Positions 38,165 through 44,833 of a stretch of 62,991 nt of DNA are shown here, piece by piece. The stretch lies in contig JAOESH010000009.1 of NCBI GenBank assembly GCA_028382005.1, positions 1 to 62,991 on the forward strand, given 5' to 3'. A program made the translations under genes and the position numbers. The notes beneath the pieces are model-generated. The model did no database searches, had not been told where the DNA came from, and worked only from the letters and a program-made list of their open reading frames with translations. The number at the start of each line of letters is the position of its first letter. Within the stretch, counting starts at the first letter, position 1. This stretch comes from Pseudomonadota bacterium. Lineage in GTDB: Bacteria; Pseudomonadota; Alphaproteobacteria; Puniceispirillales; Marisalimonadaceae.

Positions 38165-38238
38165 GCGGGTATTGTGTAGTGGTAAGACCTTAGCCTTCCA
38201 AGCTAATGACGCGAGTTCGATTCTCGCTACCCGCTCCA
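38165..38238 (+). tRNA. tRNA-Gly (TCC), integration target
   Basis: Cloverleaf with acceptor GCGGGTA/TACCCGC, anticodon stem TTAGC/GCTAA, loop CTTCCAA giving TCC, T arm with GAGTTCGATTCTC and encoded CCA. Its 3' end (38221-38239) is the left end of an integrated element and is nearly repeated at 44726-44744. Confidence 0.95.
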
Positions 38239-38313: not shown

Positions 38314-38962
38314 ATGGTAAAAAAAAAACTTCCCTTATCTTTATAAAAAAAGAGACGTGTTTTACTTTAGTAAGCATGTTCCCAAAGACTTAAGAAACTA
38401 TTACCAATGCGATCGTATTGTAATGTGCTTAAAAACTAAATGTCCTTCTCAAGCTTTAACATTATCCAAACCTATTATTCATAAACTTGAAGCTTACTGG
38501 TTCAATCTAAGATTTAAAAATACAGAAATACCTTTAGAGAAATTACTTATTAACACTGATCATACTAAATCAGAAATATTTACACCTAAACTTTCTGATG
38601 CTTTAGAAGTCTATTTTAAGCTTAAATGTCATGGTAAAGGAGACATCTTTTTTAGAGCTTCAAAACGAGCTATTAAAGACACTATAAATTTACTGAAAGA
38701 TCGCCCCATCAATAATTACACCACGATAGACGCAGCAAGGTTCCGCGATCATATGTTTGAGCGCAAACTTGCTTCATCATCTATTAAAAGAGTTTTTGCC
38801 ATTATTAGAGCCGTTATCAATATTACAATCAAAGAACATGGGCTTAATTGTCCTAATGTTTTTTCTGGTACTTTCATACCCTTTCTAGATGACACTAAAA
38901 AAAGGCAACCTATACCAATTGAAACCATTATAGATATTCAAATTTTAAAACGTTGCAACTAA
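38314..38962 (+). pseudogene. Tyrosine recombinase (phage integrase family) remnant
   Basis: About 215 residues of the N-terminal half of a tRNA-type integrase remain: the leading YKKRDVFYFSKHVPKDLRNYY with the cysteine/lysine-rich CLKTKCPSQAL (DUF6538-like start) and a SAM-like core-binding domain (FFRASKRAIKDTINLLKDRPINNYTTIDAARFRDHM...SSSIKRVFAIIRAVINI). The natural start ATG at 38314 is one base out of frame with the rest because of a run of ten A at 38319-38328. The protein also stops right after RQPIPIETIIDIQ, where the catalytic domain with its Arg, His and Tyr should begin. A GTG at 38357 could start the open part, but has no useful ribosome-binding site. I call it a pseudogene. Confidence 0.82.
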
Positions 38963-39204: not shown

Positions 39205-39804
39205 TCACAATAAGTTCTTGCAAAGTAATATTCCTCTTGAATACTTTGAGAATCTTGATGAAGGATGCGGAATTAAATTATTTATATAATCGTCGTCACA
39301 TTCATTGGAAGTCTTCACCTCCATAACACATTCTATATCTTTACGAACAGTTTGAAAATTATATTTATTAAATTTATAAGATATGTTTCTATCAAAAGTT
39401 AAACGTAATGATTTTAAGCTAAAATACTGCCTTTCATAACTGACGATAAGCGTAGGATTTAATTTGCCAAACGATTGATCTAAATAATCAAGTTTGACTA
39501 TTGCGTTTATACTTTTTGGATCTTTTATGTTTTCAGAAATTTTATAACGGCCCTCTAAGGATGAAATTTTTGTTTCTTTAGTAAATTTAAGTGTAGTATT
39601 GTACCACCTTATTCTAACTTTTTTTCTTGGTAACACTCCTTCTTCGGAATTTTCAAAAAAAGTTAAAGTGTCGTTATCAAAATAACAGCTATTAATAATC
39701 CTAGAAGGATGTAACTGCTTCATACCCTCTATAAATAAATCCTTTTGCATCAAAGCCATATCACTAATTGACAGCCTATATTTTTGTTCTTTTCTGAAAC
39801 TCAC
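39205..39804 (-). CDS. VTC-domain protein (triphosphate tunnel fold, polyphosphate polymerase-like)
   Basis: The 199-residue protein is a lone VTC domain with no SPX or membrane part. The tunnel-lining motifs are all there: RKEQKYRLS at the N-terminus, SCYFDND near 40-46, RKKVRIRWY near 60-68, KFTKETK (basic strand), VSYERQYF, LRLTFDRNISY and CVMEVK near 164-169. Yeast Vtc4 builds polyphosphate in this tunnel; bacterial relatives are of unproven activity. The GTG start overlaps the CotH stop by four bases (GTGA), so translation is coupled with the CotH-like and DUF4956 genes. Cytosolic by sequence. Confidence 0.85.
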   Translation of the reverse strand: MSFRKEQKYRLSISDMALMQKDLFIEGMKQLHPSRIINSCYFDNDTLTFFENSEEGVLPRKKVRIRWYNTTLKFTKETKISSLEGRYKISENIKDPKSINAIVKLDYLDQSFGKLNPTLIVSYERQYFSLKSLRLTFDRNISYKFNKYNFQTVRKDIECVMEVKTSNECDDDYINNLIPHPSSRFSKYSRGILLCKNLL

Positions 39805-42026
39805 TTTGTACCTAATAGCTTAATTGAATTTTTATCGATTATATATCCTTTTTTACAATCAATGTATCCAAATTTTAATCTTGCACCTCCAAACTCTTGT
39901 TTTTTTTGAACTGCCTCAAAGCAATATTTAACTTTTTTGAATTGTGCAGTAATTACATTTGTTAAAGATAAATCTTTTGACGACAATCCAATTTCAGCAA
40001 TTTCCACAAGAAGTTTATTTATTTTCAACTCTGACTTTTCACCAATTGAAACACCTTTGTCTCCACAGTTACTTAGATTAACTATTTTAAATTTATATAA
40101 ACCACCACTTACGTCAACACAATCATTGCCAGCATTTGAAACTTCAATATGATCAATATTAACACTAGAAAAATCAATGTCCAAGGCATCGGAACCAGCG
40201 TCTTTAACATCAATTTTCTTTATATTACCCATTGAATTTACTATGTTAGCACCATCTTCACAATTAGCTTTATTCACACTAATTGATGTTCTATCAAACA
40301 AAGTATTATATAAATTTAAGCATCCTGTCATACCACTGAAATTGAAAACTTGATCTTTTTCCTGTGCATTTAAGTTTTTATTTTTAATGCCAAAGAAAGA
40401 AACGTTCCACCCACTTAAGTTTGCATTTTTTATCAGAACCCAATCTGAAGGATTTGTCTGGTAAAGAATAATTTTTTTGCTTAATCCATCTACAGAAACT
40501 TTCAAACCCTTTGAATGAACTATTTCTCCATCAAAGTTTTCAAAAAATTTTAATTCTTTTTCTAAATCTATATCATTATTTACTTCTGAAATATAAATTG
40601 TTCTCTTTTGATTGAGATTATTTTTAGACAATATTGCACCAATTTCATTTTGATTTAGGTTTATCTTATCTCCATCCAAAGACAGCCCAGAATAGTTTCC
40701 ATTTAGATTTCCTAACGATGATATTACTGTTTGTTTTAAACCAAGTGATTTTTGATTATTCAAGTAACTATTTATGTTTTGGGTAAATGAGGATGTCTTA
40801 AATTCAATGCTCTTGGATTTTTTTAACTTATCTAGTAATTTTGATATGTTATTTTTAGTATTAGAAATTGCAATTTTAAAAAAAAATTTGGCTTCTTCAT
40901 TATCTATTAAAACTCTATTTTGAAAATTAAGTAAAACTTTGTTTAAGCCAAATATTTTTTTTAAAGAGTTTTGATATGTATCTTTGAAACTTTTTGTAAA
41001 TGCATTTTGTAACAATTCATTGTCTACTTTAAAATGCCCAGAAAAATCTTTACTATCAAGATCTAATCTTAAATCACCATCATAGTAAATTGGTTCAAAT
41101 TGGTTAGTAAATGAGTTAAAATAAAACCTTCTGTTATGTGGTCGAAGGCCATGCGCGCCATTCATTGCCAAAAGAGTAATAAAATACTTCTGAAACATCA
41201 TACTATTTTCTCCGTTAGGAAAAATAATTAACTGTTTCCGTGAACTCATATTTTGAGAGTAATCAAGATACGCTCTTTGTATTTTTCTATACGAATAAAG
41301 AGATATATGTTGAGAACTTTTACCTTTTAAAAACCAATTTTTATTTATCATACGTGCAAGAGAAATTGGTTCTAATGAAAAGTTTTTGTAATTTTTAAAA
41401 GACCATAGTAAACTTTCATCACCTTCAAAAATAGGCCCTTCTCGCCTTTTATTCCTTTCCAACATTTCTTTACTAGCATGTTCTTGAAATAACATGACAC
41501 TTTCAACACCATTTACAATTGTTTTAACCTGAAACGTTTCTGGAGCAATAAAACCAAGTTTACGCATTAAAACAGTTCCAAGTATTTCGTGAAGATTATT
41601 TCTTGTTTCAGGAAGGAATAATTTAAATTTTATAGCATTTAATATATTTCCTTCTTTTAGCTTGACTAAAAGTGAGCGTAAAGGCTTTCCTCCAATTGTA
41701 AAATCAACATGATCTTTCCAATCTCCACTTTGTTTTACAATAGCTTCATAGACACATTTACCAAAACTGTATTTAATGGTAATGTTTGCTTTAAATTTTT
41801 TTTTAAGTTGTGGAGGAATATTTTTTGATTTTGATACAACAATTTTAGCAAAGTTTTTATTAAATTTTCCACTTTTAGGTATTTCAATATTAATAAAATT
41901 AATTTTATTTGGTATACTTAAATCATTAGAATATTTCCCAGAAACAAAATTACAATCAGCAGTCGCTATGCCTTTAAAAGAAAATATTAAATAAGTTACC
42001 AAAAAAAATAAAATCTTGTGCTTCAT
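39801..42026 (-). CDS. CotH-like secreted protein with C-terminal beta-helix
   Basis: The 741-residue protein has a signal peptide (KHKILFFLVTYLIFSF, then ATADC), a CotH-like region about 50-400 (IVKQSGDWKDHVDF, RSLLVKLKEGNILNAIKFKLFLPETRNNLHEILGT, ETFQVKTIVNGVESVMLFQEHASKEMLERN, and YYDGDLRLDLD, which resembles the metal-binding Asp motif of CotH kinases) and a C-terminal repeat region about 440-741 with the rungs of a right-handed beta-helix (DALDIDFSSVNIDHIEVSNAG, DCVDVSGG, GVSIGEKSEL). I start at 42026, one base after the DUF4956 stop; an upstream in-frame start would overlap that gene and put the signal peptide inside. It is probably exported to the periplasm or surface. Kinase activity is inferred, not shown. 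Confidence 0.72.
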   Translation of the reverse strand: MKHKILFFLVTYLIFSFKGIATADCNFVSGKYSNDLSIPNKINFINIEIPKSGKFNKNFAKIVVSKSKNIPPQLKKKFKANITIKYSFGKCVYEAIVKQSGDWKDHVDFTIGGKPLRSLLVKLKEGNILNAIKFKLFLPETRNNLHEILGTVLMRKLGFIAPETFQVKTIVNGVESVMLFQEHASKEMLERNKRREGPIFEGDESLLWSFKNYKNFSLEPISLARMINKNWFLKGKSSQHISLYSYRKIQRAYLDYSQNMSSRKQLIIFPNGENSMMFQKYFITLLAMNGAHGLRPHNRRFYFNSFTNQFEPIYYDGDLRLDLDSKDFSGHFKVDNELLQNAFTKSFKDTYQNSLKKIFGLNKVLLNFQNRVLIDNEEAKFFFKIAISNTKNNISKLLDKLKKSKSIEFKTSSFTQNINSYLNNQKSLGLKQTVISSLGNLNGNYSGLSLDGDKINLNQNEIGAILSKNNLNQKRTIYISEVNNDIDLEKELKFFENFDGEIVHSKGLKVSVDGLSKKIILYQTNPSDWVLIKNANLSGWNVSFFGIKNKNLNAQEKDQVFNFSGMTGCLNLYNTLFDRTSISVNKANCEDGANIVNSMGNIKKIDVKDAGSDALDIDFSSVNIDHIEVSNAGNDCVDVSGGLYKFKIVNLSNCGDKGVSIGEKSELKINKLLVEIAEIGLSSKDLSLTNVITAQFKKVKYCFEAVQKKQEFGGARLKFGYIDCKKGYIIDKNSIKLLGTK

Positions 42027-42027
42027 A

Positions 42028-42660
42028 CTATTTATTGAGCTGGTAGGAAATAATATTTTTGTCTCCTTTGAGTGTTTTCTCGATAAACAAAAGATCTTTG
42101 AAATCACTTGAAGTTAAAACATATTGAATATTTTTTCCTTCTACTCGTTTCATCGTTAAAAAATTACTTTCATCAAGTCGAGACACGTATATTAAAGAAG
42201 TTATATCGAGAGCACTTAATTGGTTGCCTTCTGAAAAAGATACTGAAAAAAAAGGTTTTTTTAAAAAATATAATGTTAAACATTGCATCAACATTAATAT
42301 TATGATTGCAAAGGCCACAGAACCTACTAACAAAAAAAGCCACTTTAAACTTACTGAAGCTGCAATACCCATAGTTATAGCTCCAAAATAAACTGATAAC
42401 TCTAAAGGAGAACGAACAGGATGCCTAAATCTAACTATAGAAAGAGCTCCTACCATTCCAAGTGAAAGAGCTATATTGCCTGAAATTACATTTGTAATAA
42501 TATATGTTAATAAAGGGAGCAAAACTAGAGTAGATGTGTGTGACGATGTTGTTATCCAACGTTGACCAATTGACTGCAAAACTATCCTCAAGGTAATTGA
42601 AATCAGAATCAAAAGGGAAACTGCAATTAATTTATCAATATGTTCAAGAAAATATATCAC
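42028..42660 (-). CDS. DUF4956 family inner-membrane protein
   Basis: The 210-residue protein has about four membrane segments in the first 135 residues, then a soluble C-terminal domain of about 75 residues. The family signature is clear: NIALSLGMVGALSIVRFRHPVRSPLELSVYFGAITMGIAA near residues 61-100. The family is of unknown function and, from general knowledge of genome neighbourhoods, often sits beside VTC-domain and CotH genes, as here. The GTG start has GGAG five bases upstream. It is the first gene of the DUF4956-CotH-VTC unit and is divergent from the membrane protein gene at 42916, with a 255-base very AT-rich gap that must hold both promoters. Confidence 0.85.
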   Translation of the reverse strand: MIYFLEHIDKLIAVSLLILISITLRIVLQSIGQRWITTSSHTSTLVLLPLLTYIITNVISGNIALSLGMVGALSIVRFRHPVRSPLELSVYFGAITMGIAASVSLKWLFLLVGSVAFAIIILMLMQCLTLYFLKKPFFSVSFSEGNQLSALDITSLIYVSRLDESNFLTMKRVEGKNIQYVLTSSDFKDLLFIEKTLKGDKNIISYQLNK

Positions 42661-42915: not shown

Positions 42916-44160
42916 ATGAAAGAAAAGTCACTTGGTTACTTAGCTATTTTCTTAGTAATTTTTCCTTTAATTTATAATATTTTACATTATTGGGAAATTA
43001 GTGCGCTCAATAGTTGGCAGGCATCAGAATGGTTGATATCTTATTCTGGAGGTTTTGTCAGGAGAGGTTTTGGTGGAGAAATTATTTTTTTAATTTCCAA
43101 TTTATTTTCAATTTCTCCTTCTATACCTATAGTAGTAATTTCATTTTTTTCATATTTGCTTTTAGTAGTTATTCTTATAAAAATCACGAGAAATATTATA
43201 CCTCTTTATATATTATTTTCTCCTATATTGCTTGGAATGCCTGTTTACAATAATTTTCTCATCAGAAAAGATATTTTGGGTGTTTTATTTCTGATAATAT
43301 CTTTATTGCTTATGAAAAGAAACTTAAATATATCAACTCTAATAATAATTAATATAATTTCTATATTGGCAATATTAAATCATGAAGCTTTTATCTTTTT
43401 TGGGCTACCTATTATAATGTTAACCTTTAACCTTCTTGAAAAACAAAAAATTTGGCATCCTTTTATTTTAATAAAATTATCGCCTACTCTTTTAGTGTGT
43501 ATTCTAGTAATTTTTTTTCATGGAAACCAAGATATTTCAATGAAAATTTTTCAAACATGGAACTCTTGGATTTATGATAAATTTTCATATTGTTGTATGC
43601 TAAAAAAAGATTATGCAATAGATGCTCTAGCCACTTCAATTCAAGGGCCCATGGGTCTATCAAAAAGTGTTCTGTATCATTGGGCTGGTTGGATTTTATA
43701 TGTACCTTTAGTTTGGTTAATCTCTTTATGTGTTTCTGCATTAATTTTAGGACAGTTAGCCCTTAATGATAATTCAATAAGATATACATTTTATATTTTA
43801 TTTTTAATACAAACAATTTTTGTATTTCCTTTGTTTGTTATAGGTTGGGATTTTGGTAGATGGATATTTTTTATTTTAATTTCTTCCATTTCTTGGGTTT
43901 CTATATTTCAAGATACTTTAACAAAACCTTATCAAACAACTAATTTCAATTTTCAAAAATTTACATTCACTATTCGAAGACGTAATAGAATTGCTATATT
44001 TCTGTTATTTTTTTCTATTCCTAGTTGTTGCTGGACTTTACAAAGTTATATAAAAAACACTCCTTTTTTTTCAAATTATAATATATTTTCAGAAGTGATA
44101 ACAGGGTATAATTTAAAAGAACAACATCAACTTTTAATTAAATTTTTAAAAAAATATTAA
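42916..44160 (+). CDS. Polytopic membrane protein, possible GT-C-like glycosyltransferase
   Basis: The 414-residue protein has around 10-11 membrane segments, spread over its whole length. After the first segment comes SEWLISYSGGFVRRGFGGEI near residues 36-55, a charged stretch that recalls a group of bacterial hypothetical membrane proteins in surface-polysaccharide loci; RKDILGVLF and ILNHEAFIFFGLP follow. Acidic and aromatic residues in the first outer loop would fit a GT-C enzyme or polymerase, but the class is not certain. The ATG has GGAG seven bases upstream. It reads away from the DUF4956-CotH-VTC unit and is the last gene of the element. Confidence 0.6.
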   Translation: MKEKSLGYLAIFLVIFPLIYNILHYWEISALNSWQASEWLISYSGGFVRRGFGGEIIFLISNLFSISPSIPIVVISFFSYLLLVVILIKITRNIIPLYILFSPILLGMPVYNNFLIRKDILGVLFLIISLLLMKRNLNISTLIIINIISILAILNHEAFIFFGLPIIMLTFNLLEKQKIWHPFILIKLSPTLLVCILVIFFHGNQDISMKIFQTWNSWIYDKFSYCCMLKKDYAIDALATSIQGPMGLSKSVLYHWAGWILYVPLVWLISLCVSALILGQLALNDNSIRYTFYILFLIQTIFVFPLFVIGWDFGRWIFFILISSISWVSIFQDTLTKPYQTTNFNFQKFTFTIRRRNRIAIFLLFFSIPSCCWTLQSYIKNTPFFSNYNIFSEVITGYNLKEQHQLLIKFLKKY

Positions 44161-44833
44161 TGGAAAAATGTAAAATTTATGTAAACATTTTGCTCTAGAA
44201 AGTTAATTATATTTGGCACAAGAGTTACATAACTATGTTAAAGAGAATGTAATCCAGCAATCGTCTGTCTCACAGACACTTGAGCTGCAAGGCAATAAAG
44301 ATAGAGTGCTTGTACAGTTTAACTAACACACCATTCCTAATCATTTAAGGTCTCTAAAGGGTCGTTAATACATAACCATATGTCATAGCTTCTGATTACA
44401 CTAAAAGCTCTCACCGGATACCGGATTGGATTTGAAATGGTTAACAGTTATTTGAGCACATCTGTGTAAGAGCACAACTATATATATCCTAGGTGACCGG
44501 CATGGCTCTCGCATGGGTAGGGTTATTTAAAATGTTACATATAAGTGTCTTTAACATCTAAATATTATTATCATTTACGTAAGGATATTCTATTACGGGA
44601 ACATTTTTAGTGGGGCAGACCAACCGGTAGACCATTATGTGCCTGTTGACACAGATTCAGTAATACATAATATGAGGATAGAGCTTGTATACAACTACAA
44701 GTGGTGTATATAAGATGAACTTAACTTCTCGCTACCCGTTCCAAGGATTGGGCATCCATCCATAATAATTCAATAGTCCTTATGTTATTTTTATAGAAAA
44801 ATCAAAATAAAAAATTAAAAGGGCTATGAAAAT
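44161..44833. other. Gene-free stretch at the right end of the integrated element
   Basis: About 670 bases with no convincing gene. It is visibly less AT-rich than its surroundings and dense in stops on the strands I read. Items seen: a short open frame at 44213-44326 (37 codons, TTG start, starts MAQELHNY), near-tandem CCGGATA/CCGGATT around 44418, and the att-like sequence at 44726. It could be decayed phage DNA, recombinase arm sites or an unknown RNA; nothing decides. Confidence 0.5.
44726..44744 (+). repeat. attR-like copy of the tRNA-Gly 3' end
   Basis: TTCTCGCTACCCGTTCCAA, identical to 38221-38239 except T for C at position 14. It is not part of a tRNA here: no matching 5' half lies upstream. 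Confidence 0.78.

What the first reader, a model, noticed from the sequence alone, without database searches (positions are those of the whole stretch)
39205..42660. DUF4956 - CotH-like - VTC cassette: candidate polymer system
Three coupled genes (1-base gap, then 4-base overlap) encode an inner-membrane protein of unknown function, an exported CotH-like protein and a cytosolic VTC tunnel enzyme with its phosphate-tunnel motifs intact. VTC enzymes make polyphosphate and CotH proteins are kinase-like. Together they could make, export and attach a phosphate-containing or other polymer at the cell surface. I know no worked-out function for this set in bacteria.
Basis: partly seen in the sequence, partly recalled or inferred. 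Interest (0 to 1): 0.75.

Follow-up and report, generated by a model that had tools for sequence, protein, structure and literature searches.

The report
Mobile three-gene surface-polymer cassette
A bacterium, probably marine, carries on a DNA island inserted at a tRNA gene three linked genes that may build a phosphate polymer inside the cell, pass it through the membrane and use it on sugar polymers at the cell surface; related cassettes sit in quite different ocean bacteria, and their function is unproven.

Summary
The trio is real: DUF4956 membrane protein, exported CotH-like protein, VTC enzyme. In the two phyla sampled, every VTC locus examined with enough flank has DUF4956 beside it (7 of 8 in the window's order, the eighth cut by a contig end; 11 of 11 in its phylum, two counted in both; 30 of 30 in the phylum of Butyrivibrio). 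The third slot varies: CotH, or the glycan-binding beta-helix protein Cthe_2159, never both in loci scored. Here the exported protein is a fusion: CotH kinase fold (Foldseek 5jda, E 3e-10) plus a beta-helix carrying 15 invariant residues. VTC keeps the residues whose change inactivates yeast Vtc4; the CotH part keeps the metal Asp but aligns an invariant His with the catalytic Asp. The cassette lies on a 6.5-kb island at tRNA-Gly with a tRNA-end repeat, an integrase remnant and empty sites in sister genomes; in a 21-locus tree its nearest relatives are from Pelagibacter and Prochlorococcus, not its own genus. The trio was known as an accessory of Gram-positive Pel loci; no PelG was found here. 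Best reading: cytosolic phosphate-polymer synthesis, transfer through DUF4956, action on a surface glycan. Product and transport are inferred.

The parts
42028..42660 (-). DUF4956 membrane protein, 210 aa: model with five helices of 13 or more residues before a C-terminal ACT/RAM-like domain; the number of membrane passes (four or five) is inferred
   Evidence: (13 invariant columns in 66 sequences, R77 and R79 among them)
39801..42026 (-). Exported CotH-fold + right-handed beta-helix protein, 741 aa; the N-terminal signal-like stretch was read by eye, no signal predictor was run
40737..41798 (-). CotH kinase-like domain (about residues 77-430, limits approximate); invariant H292 at 41151-41153, aligned with the catalytic Asp of CotH kinases; invariant D316 at 41079-41081
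39804..40325 (-). C-terminal beta-helix (about residues 568-741); D591, D613, D616, D618, D635, D638, D656, K657, S660, G662, E663, K684, D685, S687, K708 invariant where present in 21 sequences
39205..39804 (-). VTC (PF09359) triphosphate-tunnel protein, 199 aa, covered by the VTC match alone; R64, R66, E162 correspond to Vtc4 R264, R266, E426
38165..38238 (+). tRNA-Gly (tcc), the integration site; the island lies on its 3' side
38357..38962 (+). Integrase remnant, 201 aa (DUF6538 and weak SAM-like matches, no catalytic domain found); related integrase genes stand at the same site in four sister genomes, 362-389 aa in three of them
44722..44743 (+). att-like repeat of the tRNA-Gly 3' end, the far edge of the island
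42916..44160 (+). Divergent membrane-like protein of unknown family, 414 aa, inside the island

Best explanation
A mobile cassette for a machine that spans the inner membrane. The cytosolic VTC enzyme uses ATP to make polyphosphate or a closely related phosphate chain (inferred from its conserved catalytic residues). DUF4956, its constant neighbour, is its membrane partner and takes the chain across, doing the job that the membrane helices of yeast VTC do (inferred from the pairing and from conserved arginines). The exported CotH-fold/beta-helix protein works on the far side: the beta-helix binds or processes an acidic surface glycan, and the altered kinase fold links the phosphate chain to it or regulates it (inferred). 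Shown by computation: gene order, linkage, predicted folds, residue conservation, island structure and horizontal transfer. Not shown: product, transport, substrate.
For: VTC loci have DUF4956 beside them wherever flank allows: 7 of 8 in the order, the eighth cut by a contig end; 11 of 11 over cut-off in 397 genomes of the phylum, the window genome's two loci being in both counts; 30 of 30 loci fetched, out of 57 matches, in the phylum of Butyrivibrio. From DUF4956: 73 of 81 loci have VTC, and 7 of the 8 misses are cut by a contig end. VTC keeps Vtc4's R264/R266/E426, and yeast VTC passes its product through a channel lined with basic residues (PMC9911596 passages). Fold of the exported protein: 5jda/5jd9 first; weaker beta-helix matches include a phage depolymerase, pectate lyases, polygalacturonases and AlgE4. 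Glycan context: PelG-CotH fusions in two Paenibacillus; alternation of CotH with Cthe_2159, a family described as binding cellulose and acid sugars (PMC6712302 passages); sugar-nucleotide, acyltransferase, epimerase or prenyltransferase genes beside trios in L012, L200 and L201.
Against: No polymer has been measured. In S. intermedius Pel is made without SIR_1591-1594, and no effect of deleting the VTC gene (SIR_1593) is reported (PMC12345266). VTC belongs to a superfamily of varied chemistry. No homology of DUF4956 to yeast VTC membrane helices was seen: the 50 best structural matches, all above E 0.01, are mostly Lrp/ACT/NikR-type domains and include no VTC; no dedicated test was made. The window's own island holds no recognisable glycan-synthesis gene. 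PPK1 is present in 4 of 7 trio genomes, so VTC would be a second polyphosphate source there; it was not found in the window's genome, which is 81% complete. Six VTC-DUF4956 pairs in one family of the window's class have no CotH in the stretches read, and one beta-helix relative (L202) has neither VTC nor DUF4956 in its 11 kb.
Confidence: 0.5

Rival explanations
1. VTC and DUF4956 form a phosphate- or nucleotide-sensing regulator of surface polysaccharide secretion, with no polymer exported; CotH or the beta-helix is the extracytoplasmic output.
For: DUF4956 ends in an ACT/RAM-like domain of a kind common in metabolite sensing; in S. intermedius, loss of SIR_1592 (membrane helices plus ACT domain, which I take to be the DUF4956 protein) raises Pel and loss of the CotH gene SIR_1594 lowers it.
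Against: The VTC catalytic residues are kept in all 8 proteins of the order aligned, which points to enzyme activity; 11 of 50 trio genomes tested have PelG over cut-off, so a Pel-specific role would cover a minority.
Confidence: 0.25
2. The exported protein is a glycan-binding or glycan-cleaving enzyme (a polysaccharide-lyase-like beta-helix) on a pseudokinase scaffold; phosphate is incidental and VTC-DUF4956 supplies only energy or an ionic counter-polymer.
For: The beta-helix holds 15 invariant residues against three (G101, H292, D316) in the CotH part; structural matches to lyases and hydrolases; His aligned with the catalytic Asp of CotH.
Against: The beta-helix matches are weak (E above 0.1) and no lyase active site was mapped; D316 stays invariant, which a dead scaffold would not need.
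Confidence: 0.2
3. The trio is idle cargo of a decaying island, not expressed.
For: The integrase is truncated and carriage is patchy: 7 of 101 relatives, none of the 38 that are at least 90% complete.
Against: All three frames are intact, a sister pair shows purifying selection, and the genome holds a second full trio.
Confidence: 0.05

Closest known systems
Accessory genes cotH, PPP (VTC), DUF4956 and DUF4832 of Gram-positive Pel loci (PMC7112168 passages; S. intermedius SIR_1592-1594, PMC12345266 passages and section 20)
   Same: The same three families as neighbours, with an exported CotH protein and a membrane protein with a C-terminal ACT domain
   Different: No PelG found in the genome; different gene order; CotH fused to a beta-helix; His aligned with the catalytic Asp; carried on a tRNA-inserted island
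Yeast VTC complex (Vtc1/Vtc3/Vtc4)
   Same: VTC tunnel domain with the R264, R266 and E426 equivalents kept
   Different: No SPX and no fused membrane domain; the proposed membrane partner is a separate protein with no seen likeness to VTC helices
B. cereus / B. subtilis CotH kinase (5jda, 5jd9)
   Same: Fold, and the second catalytic (metal) Asp
   Different: Exported, with a beta-helix; invariant His aligned with the catalytic Asp; Pfam cut-off not reached
Cthe_2159 family (PF14262)
   Same: A beta-helix protein filling the same slot beside VTC-DUF4956; described as binding cellulose and acid sugars (PMC6712302 passages)
   Different: No sequence similarity to the window's beta-helix was found (hhalign E 0.65)
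Tycheposons / tRNA-linked flexible islands of marine bacteria (PMC10872708 passages)
   Same: tRNA border, tyrosine recombinase, cargo, relatives in marine hosts
   Different: The recombinase here is truncated; the original tycheposon paper was not held, so its definition is second-hand

Membership tests
VTC domain (PF09359) | Pfam score over the curated cut-off | tested here: met
   79.6 bits against 23
VTC domain (PF09359) | Residues whose joint change inactivates Vtc4 (R264, R266, E426) | tested here: met
   Window R64, R66, E162; invariant in the 8 sequences of A2. E162-E426 rests on a weak second alignment segment, counted by hand
VTC domain (PF09359) | Makes polyphosphate from ATP | not testable with these tools
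   Needs an enzyme assay
Eukaryotic VTC complex | SPX domain and membrane domain fused to the tunnel domain | tested here: not met
   199-aa protein whose residues 4-193 are the VTC match
CotH kinase (PF08757) | Kinase fold | tested here: met
   Foldseek 5jda E 3.3e-10, probability 1.00
CotH kinase (PF08757) | Pfam score over the cut-off | tested here: not met
   No hit for the window protein; relatives L011 and L080 pass
CotH kinase (PF08757) | Catalytic Asp (B. subtilis D228, PMC7821199 passages) | tested here: not met
   His in 21 of 21 beta-helix-type sequences aligned; Asp in 50 of 54 scorable other CotH proteins. By sequence alignment, not superposition
CotH kinase (PF08757) | Second catalytic Asp (B. 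subtilis D251) | tested here: met
   D316; Asp in all 67 sequences scorable there (5 unscored) and in 21 of 21
DUF4956 (PF16316) | Pfam score over the cut-off | tested here: inconclusive
   29.2 bits against 30.6; core motif shared with 65 relatives
Pel accessory module | Contiguous with pel genes | tested here: not met
   No PelG match in the window's genome or in 6 other trio genomes of its order (all incomplete)
Cthe_2159 | Sequence homology of the beta-helix | tested here: not met
   hhalign E 0.65; no hmmsearch match over the inclusion threshold
Tycheposon | tRNA border with repeat of its 3' end | tested here: met
   19 of 24 bases; best of 60 base shuffles 16
Tycheposon | Complete tyrosine recombinase | tested here: not met
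   201-aa remnant without a catalytic-domain match; L137's 362-aa relative has one

The most novel reading that the evidence does not exclude
The cassette is an ATP-independent phosphorylation system for the cell exterior: VTC spends cytosolic ATP to make polyphosphate, DUF4956 exports it, and the CotH-fold protein, with a histidine in place of the kinase's catalytic aspartate, uses polyphosphate instead of ATP as phosphate donor to modify an acidic glycan held on its beta-helix. It would explain how a kinase fold could act where there is no ATP, and it moves between ocean bacteria as tRNA-inserted cargo.
Probability: 0.12. Interest if true: 0.9.

Novelty: new variant of a known kind. Interest (0 to 1): 0.62.

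Why it matters
The 2025 S. intermedius paper says its analyses fail to find this three-gene synteny outside the Pel locus (passage read; the scope of their search was not seen). Here it occurs in genomes without a PelG match, and its core pair held in every VTC locus examined with enough flank in two phyla. That makes a simple test possible of whether bacteria have their own two-part VTC machine that makes and exports polyphosphate, and of what CotH proteins do outside spores. Near relatives in Prochlorococcus, Pelagibacter and this genome suggest a surface trait worth having in the open ocean (inference).

Tried and rejected
Direct profile-profile comparison of the window's CotH-like family with Pfam-type CotH gave only E 0.037. 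Sequence searches of the PDB found no CotH chain with this family or with L011. Homology of the beta-helix to Cthe_2159 was tested and not found. The 414-aa membrane-like protein gave no Pfam or NCBIfam family and no relative among the loci then held. att-like repeats at the other tRNA-linked trios were not convincing (best match of 24 against the maximum of 60 shuffles: window 19 against 16; L015 18 against 17; L003 16 against 15 but 9 kb away; L014 16 against 16; L013 14 against 16; L019 14 against 15; L034 13 against 15). Viral contigs: DUF4956 gave one (L097), the exported protein none. 'Standard Pel accessory' was rejected for lack of PelG. VTC-DUF4956 fusions were looked for by frame length: no frame over 313 among matches over the cut-off; one search gives 447 for G039, but that VTC reads as 210 aa from its start. 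The viral fold library gave five matches below E 0.001, four without a name and Bacillus phage G Gp353; not followed.

Limits. Most genomes are incomplete. Named loci were the best 80 of at least 563 relatives, so not a random sample. CotH counts accept a match anywhere in the locus and include nine loci added by hand on the family profiles or Pfam (L017, L018, L019, L020, L022, L034, L053, L080, L091). The Cthe_2159 profile was built from four of the loci it then counted. In the Butyrivibrio phylum 30 of 57 matches were fetched, with about 1.5 kb on each side. A VTC match under the cut-off (G304) was not followed. L021 and L022, also without a tRNA, were left out of the tRNA count because their trios are cut. 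L200-L203 are not in the tree; four rows of the tree (L011, L017, L034, L091) lack one gene. Listed papers that hold DUF4956 or these product names but that I did not open: PMC6848847, PMC10434189, PMC11677781, PMC13024400.
Full report
Observation. Pfam recognises VTC clearly (E 3.4e-22), DUF4956 just under its cut-off (29.2 against 30.6 bits) and the middle protein not at all. The same genome holds a second complete trio in the same order on another contig; the two are 20% (DUF4956), 23% (CotH-like) and 27% (VTC) identical.

Linkage. Of 101 genomes (the window's and 100 relatives), 7 have VTC, at 8 loci; none of the 38 genomes at least 90% complete does. All 8 loci have the CotH-like protein and 7 have DUF4956; at the eighth (L011) the contig starts just before the CotH gene. 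Seeding with DUF4956 gave 80 named loci and one viral contig: 73 of 81 have VTC; of the 8 without, 7 are cut by a contig end on the relevant side and one (L024) is a real miss at this sensitivity. Seeding with VTC in 397 genomes of the phylum gave 11 loci over cut-off in 8 genomes (two of the loci are the window genome's), all 11 with DUF4956 adjacent or one gene away and 5 with CotH (DUF4956 of L157 was found by Pfam only). In 299 genomes of the phylum of Butyrivibrio sp. M55, 46 have VTC, with 57 matches; all 30 loci fetched have DUF4956 adjacent, 15 have CotH and 10 Cthe_2159 within about 1.5 kb, none both, 5 neither. In the 81 loci, 64 have a CotH-type protein, 7 Cthe_2159, none both, 10 neither; 59 have DUF4956, VTC and CotH together. 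So the pair is the core and the exported protein is an exchangeable third part.

VTC. The alignment of 8 proteins keeps K8, R64, R66, R125, E162, K164 and K187 among its 18 invariant positions. Matched to the PDB chains of yeast Vtc4, with the chain's offset of three worked out, R64, R66 and E162 are R264, R266 and E426, the three residues substituted to inactivate Vtc4 in PMC9911596 (passages read); the E162 match lies in a weak second segment and was counted by hand. The same paper describes five inner helices forming a channel lined with basic residues. The bacterial protein has no membrane part.

DUF4956. A model from 66 sequences (pLDDT 85, pTM 0.65) has five long helices and a C-terminal domain. 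The 50 best structural matches, none below E 0.01, are mostly Lrp, ACT and NikR-type domains. Thirteen columns are invariant, among them R77 and R79. That the helices cross the membrane four or five times and that the arginines face the cytosol and VTC is my inference.

Exported protein. The model of 741 residues (pLDDT 80, pTM 0.81, 9 sequences) matches B. cereus CotH kinase first (5jda, E 3.3e-10; 5jd9, 5.6e-10), then other kinases (E 0.004 and above); a depolymerase, polygalacturonases, pectate lyases and AlgE4 are among weaker beta-helix matches (E 0.16 to 1). A CotH profile built from seven other loci scores the window at 23 bits and L011 at 84; of 16 family members 9 pass its inclusion threshold, 5 score below it and L012 and L013 do not match. 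The published catalytic residues of B. subtilis CotH are D228 and D251 (PMC7821199 passages). Among the other CotH proteins of these loci, the D228 position is Asp in 50 of 54 scorable, His in 3 and Ser in 1 (2 unscored); the D251 position is Asp in all 67 scorable, members of the window's family included. In that automatic alignment the window's family is poorly placed at D228 (of 16: 9 His; A, Q, G and V one each, the window's own being A, next to its His; 3 unscored). In an alignment of 21 beta-helix-type proteins H292 and D316 are invariant, and two further ones, L200 and L201, agree. There is one extra residue between H292 and the following HN motif, so the match of H292 to D228 rests on sequence alignment and is not proven in structure. 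L049, L052, L068 and L011 have an Asp two residues after this His, which could take the base's role there; the window has none. A beta-helix profile finds these proteins in Pelagibacteraceae, Prochlorococcus, Thiodiazotropha, Campylobacteraceae, Elusimicrobiaceae, an Olavius symbiont and Bacteroidales; it was trained on 15 of the window's family, and L049, L052, L068, L080 and L090 were found by it.

Context. No PelG match was found in the window's genome or six other trio genomes of its order. Of 50 genomes tested (of the 81 loci), 11 have PelG over cut-off and 12 at E 0.001; none of the seven of L017-L020, L022, L034 and L091 does. Two Paenibacillus frames fuse PelG to CotH. Three related trios stand beside glycan genes: nucleotidyltransferase with mannose-phosphate isomerase (L012); acyltransferase, nucleotidyltransferases and epimerase (L200, a one-contig 1.32-Mb genome); UbiA, short-chain dehydrogenase and FAD oxidase that recall the decaprenylphosphoryl-arabinose pathway (L201; pathway name recalled). 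A search of 385 genomes of the class with the exported protein found it in 5, the window's included; of the four others, L200, L201 and L203 hold all three genes and L202 only the beta-helix protein in 11 kb. PPK1 is present in 4 of 7 trio genomes and was not found in the window's.

Island. tRNA-Gly (38165-38238) is followed by a 201-residue integrase remnant, the trio and a divergent membrane-like protein; at 44722 stands a copy of the tRNA's 3' end (19 of 24 bases; 60 base shuffles reached at most 16). In 17 regions fetched from the genus, the matched part of EamA lies about 16-100 bases from tRNA-Gly in 10 (in L144 with the tRNA displaced from hemH); in 6 the site holds other DNA, 4 of them with a related integrase (43-46% identical; L134 does not reach EamA within the stretch); one region ends at its contig end. 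Integrase frames of 362-389 residues occur in L134, L137 and L138, and the one tested, L137, has a catalytic domain; an att-like sequence one base different from the window's occurs in L134 and L138. Of 15 loci with this type of trio scanned for tRNAs, 7 have one in the stretch held, and in all 7 the 3' end of the nearest tRNA faces the trio; L014 and L015 share a site, and in L015 the distance is 5 kb. Repeats at those other sites were not convincing.

Transfer. A tree of the three proteins of 21 loci places the window with Pelagibacter L017 and Prochlorococcus L018 and L019 (100/99). Holding the six own-genus trios together is rejected (p-AU 2e-9), as is holding the genome's two trios together (the second group was named after the tree was seen). 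The program warns of long branches and odd letter make-up in several rows, so finer placement is unsure.

Literature. Full-text searches for DUF4956 with CotH and VTC, VTC domain with CotH, protein-name phrases, DUF4956 alone (3 papers), tunnel enzymes and CotH with beta-helix were made in a library of open-licence papers only. In the papers I opened, the trio is described as a Gram-positive Pel accessory (PMC7112168 passages; PMC12345266 passages and section 20), and VTC, CotH and a small protein annotated as a tubulin-like GTPase share a C. perfringens locus (PMC2879425 passages; that the small protein is DUF4956 is my guess). PMC12345266 says its analyses fail to find the synteny outside the Pel locus. 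In that paper deletion of SIR_1592 raised and of SIR_1594 lowered Pel, both cut aggregation by more than half in one medium, all four accessory mutants still made Pel, and no effect of the VTC mutant is reported.

Verdict. A real, conserved, mobile module whose core pair most likely makes and moves a phosphate polymer and whose exported part acts on surface glycan. It is a variant, found here in Gram-negative lineages, of a known but unexplained set.

Noticed in passing
L003:8792-12775 (same genome, contig C1): A second complete trio in the same order, beside tRNA-Met, only 20-27% identical to the window's.
   Followed up: yes
L027:2920-6198, L044:2951-6100: Paenibacillus frames fusing the PelG exporter to a CotH domain.
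   Followed up: partly
L046, L058, L062, L069, L072, L079, L083 and 10 of L164-L193: Cthe_2159 beta-helix proteins take the place of CotH beside VTC-DUF4956; never both in the loci scored.
   Followed up: partly
L157-L161, L163: One family of the window's class (f16) has VTC-DUF4956 pairs with no CotH in the stretches read; their partners are unknown.
   Followed up: no
L134, L135, L137, L138, L142, L143: The tRNA-Gly site is a hotspot with different cargo in sister genomes, including small related-looking proteins of about 113 residues.
   Followed up: partly
window 42916-44160; L014:7863-9077: Membrane-like proteins without any Pfam family beside the trio; phmmer with the window's found no relative among the loci then held.
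   Followed up: partly
L201:6960-12370: UbiA, dehydrogenase and FAD oxidase genes that recall the decaprenylphosphoryl-arabinose pathway beside a trio.
   Followed up: no
L202: A beta-helix relative of the exported protein with neither VTC nor DUF4956 in 11 kb.
   Followed up: no
L097 (viral contig): A contig from the viral collection carries adjacent VTC and DUF4956.
   Followed up: no
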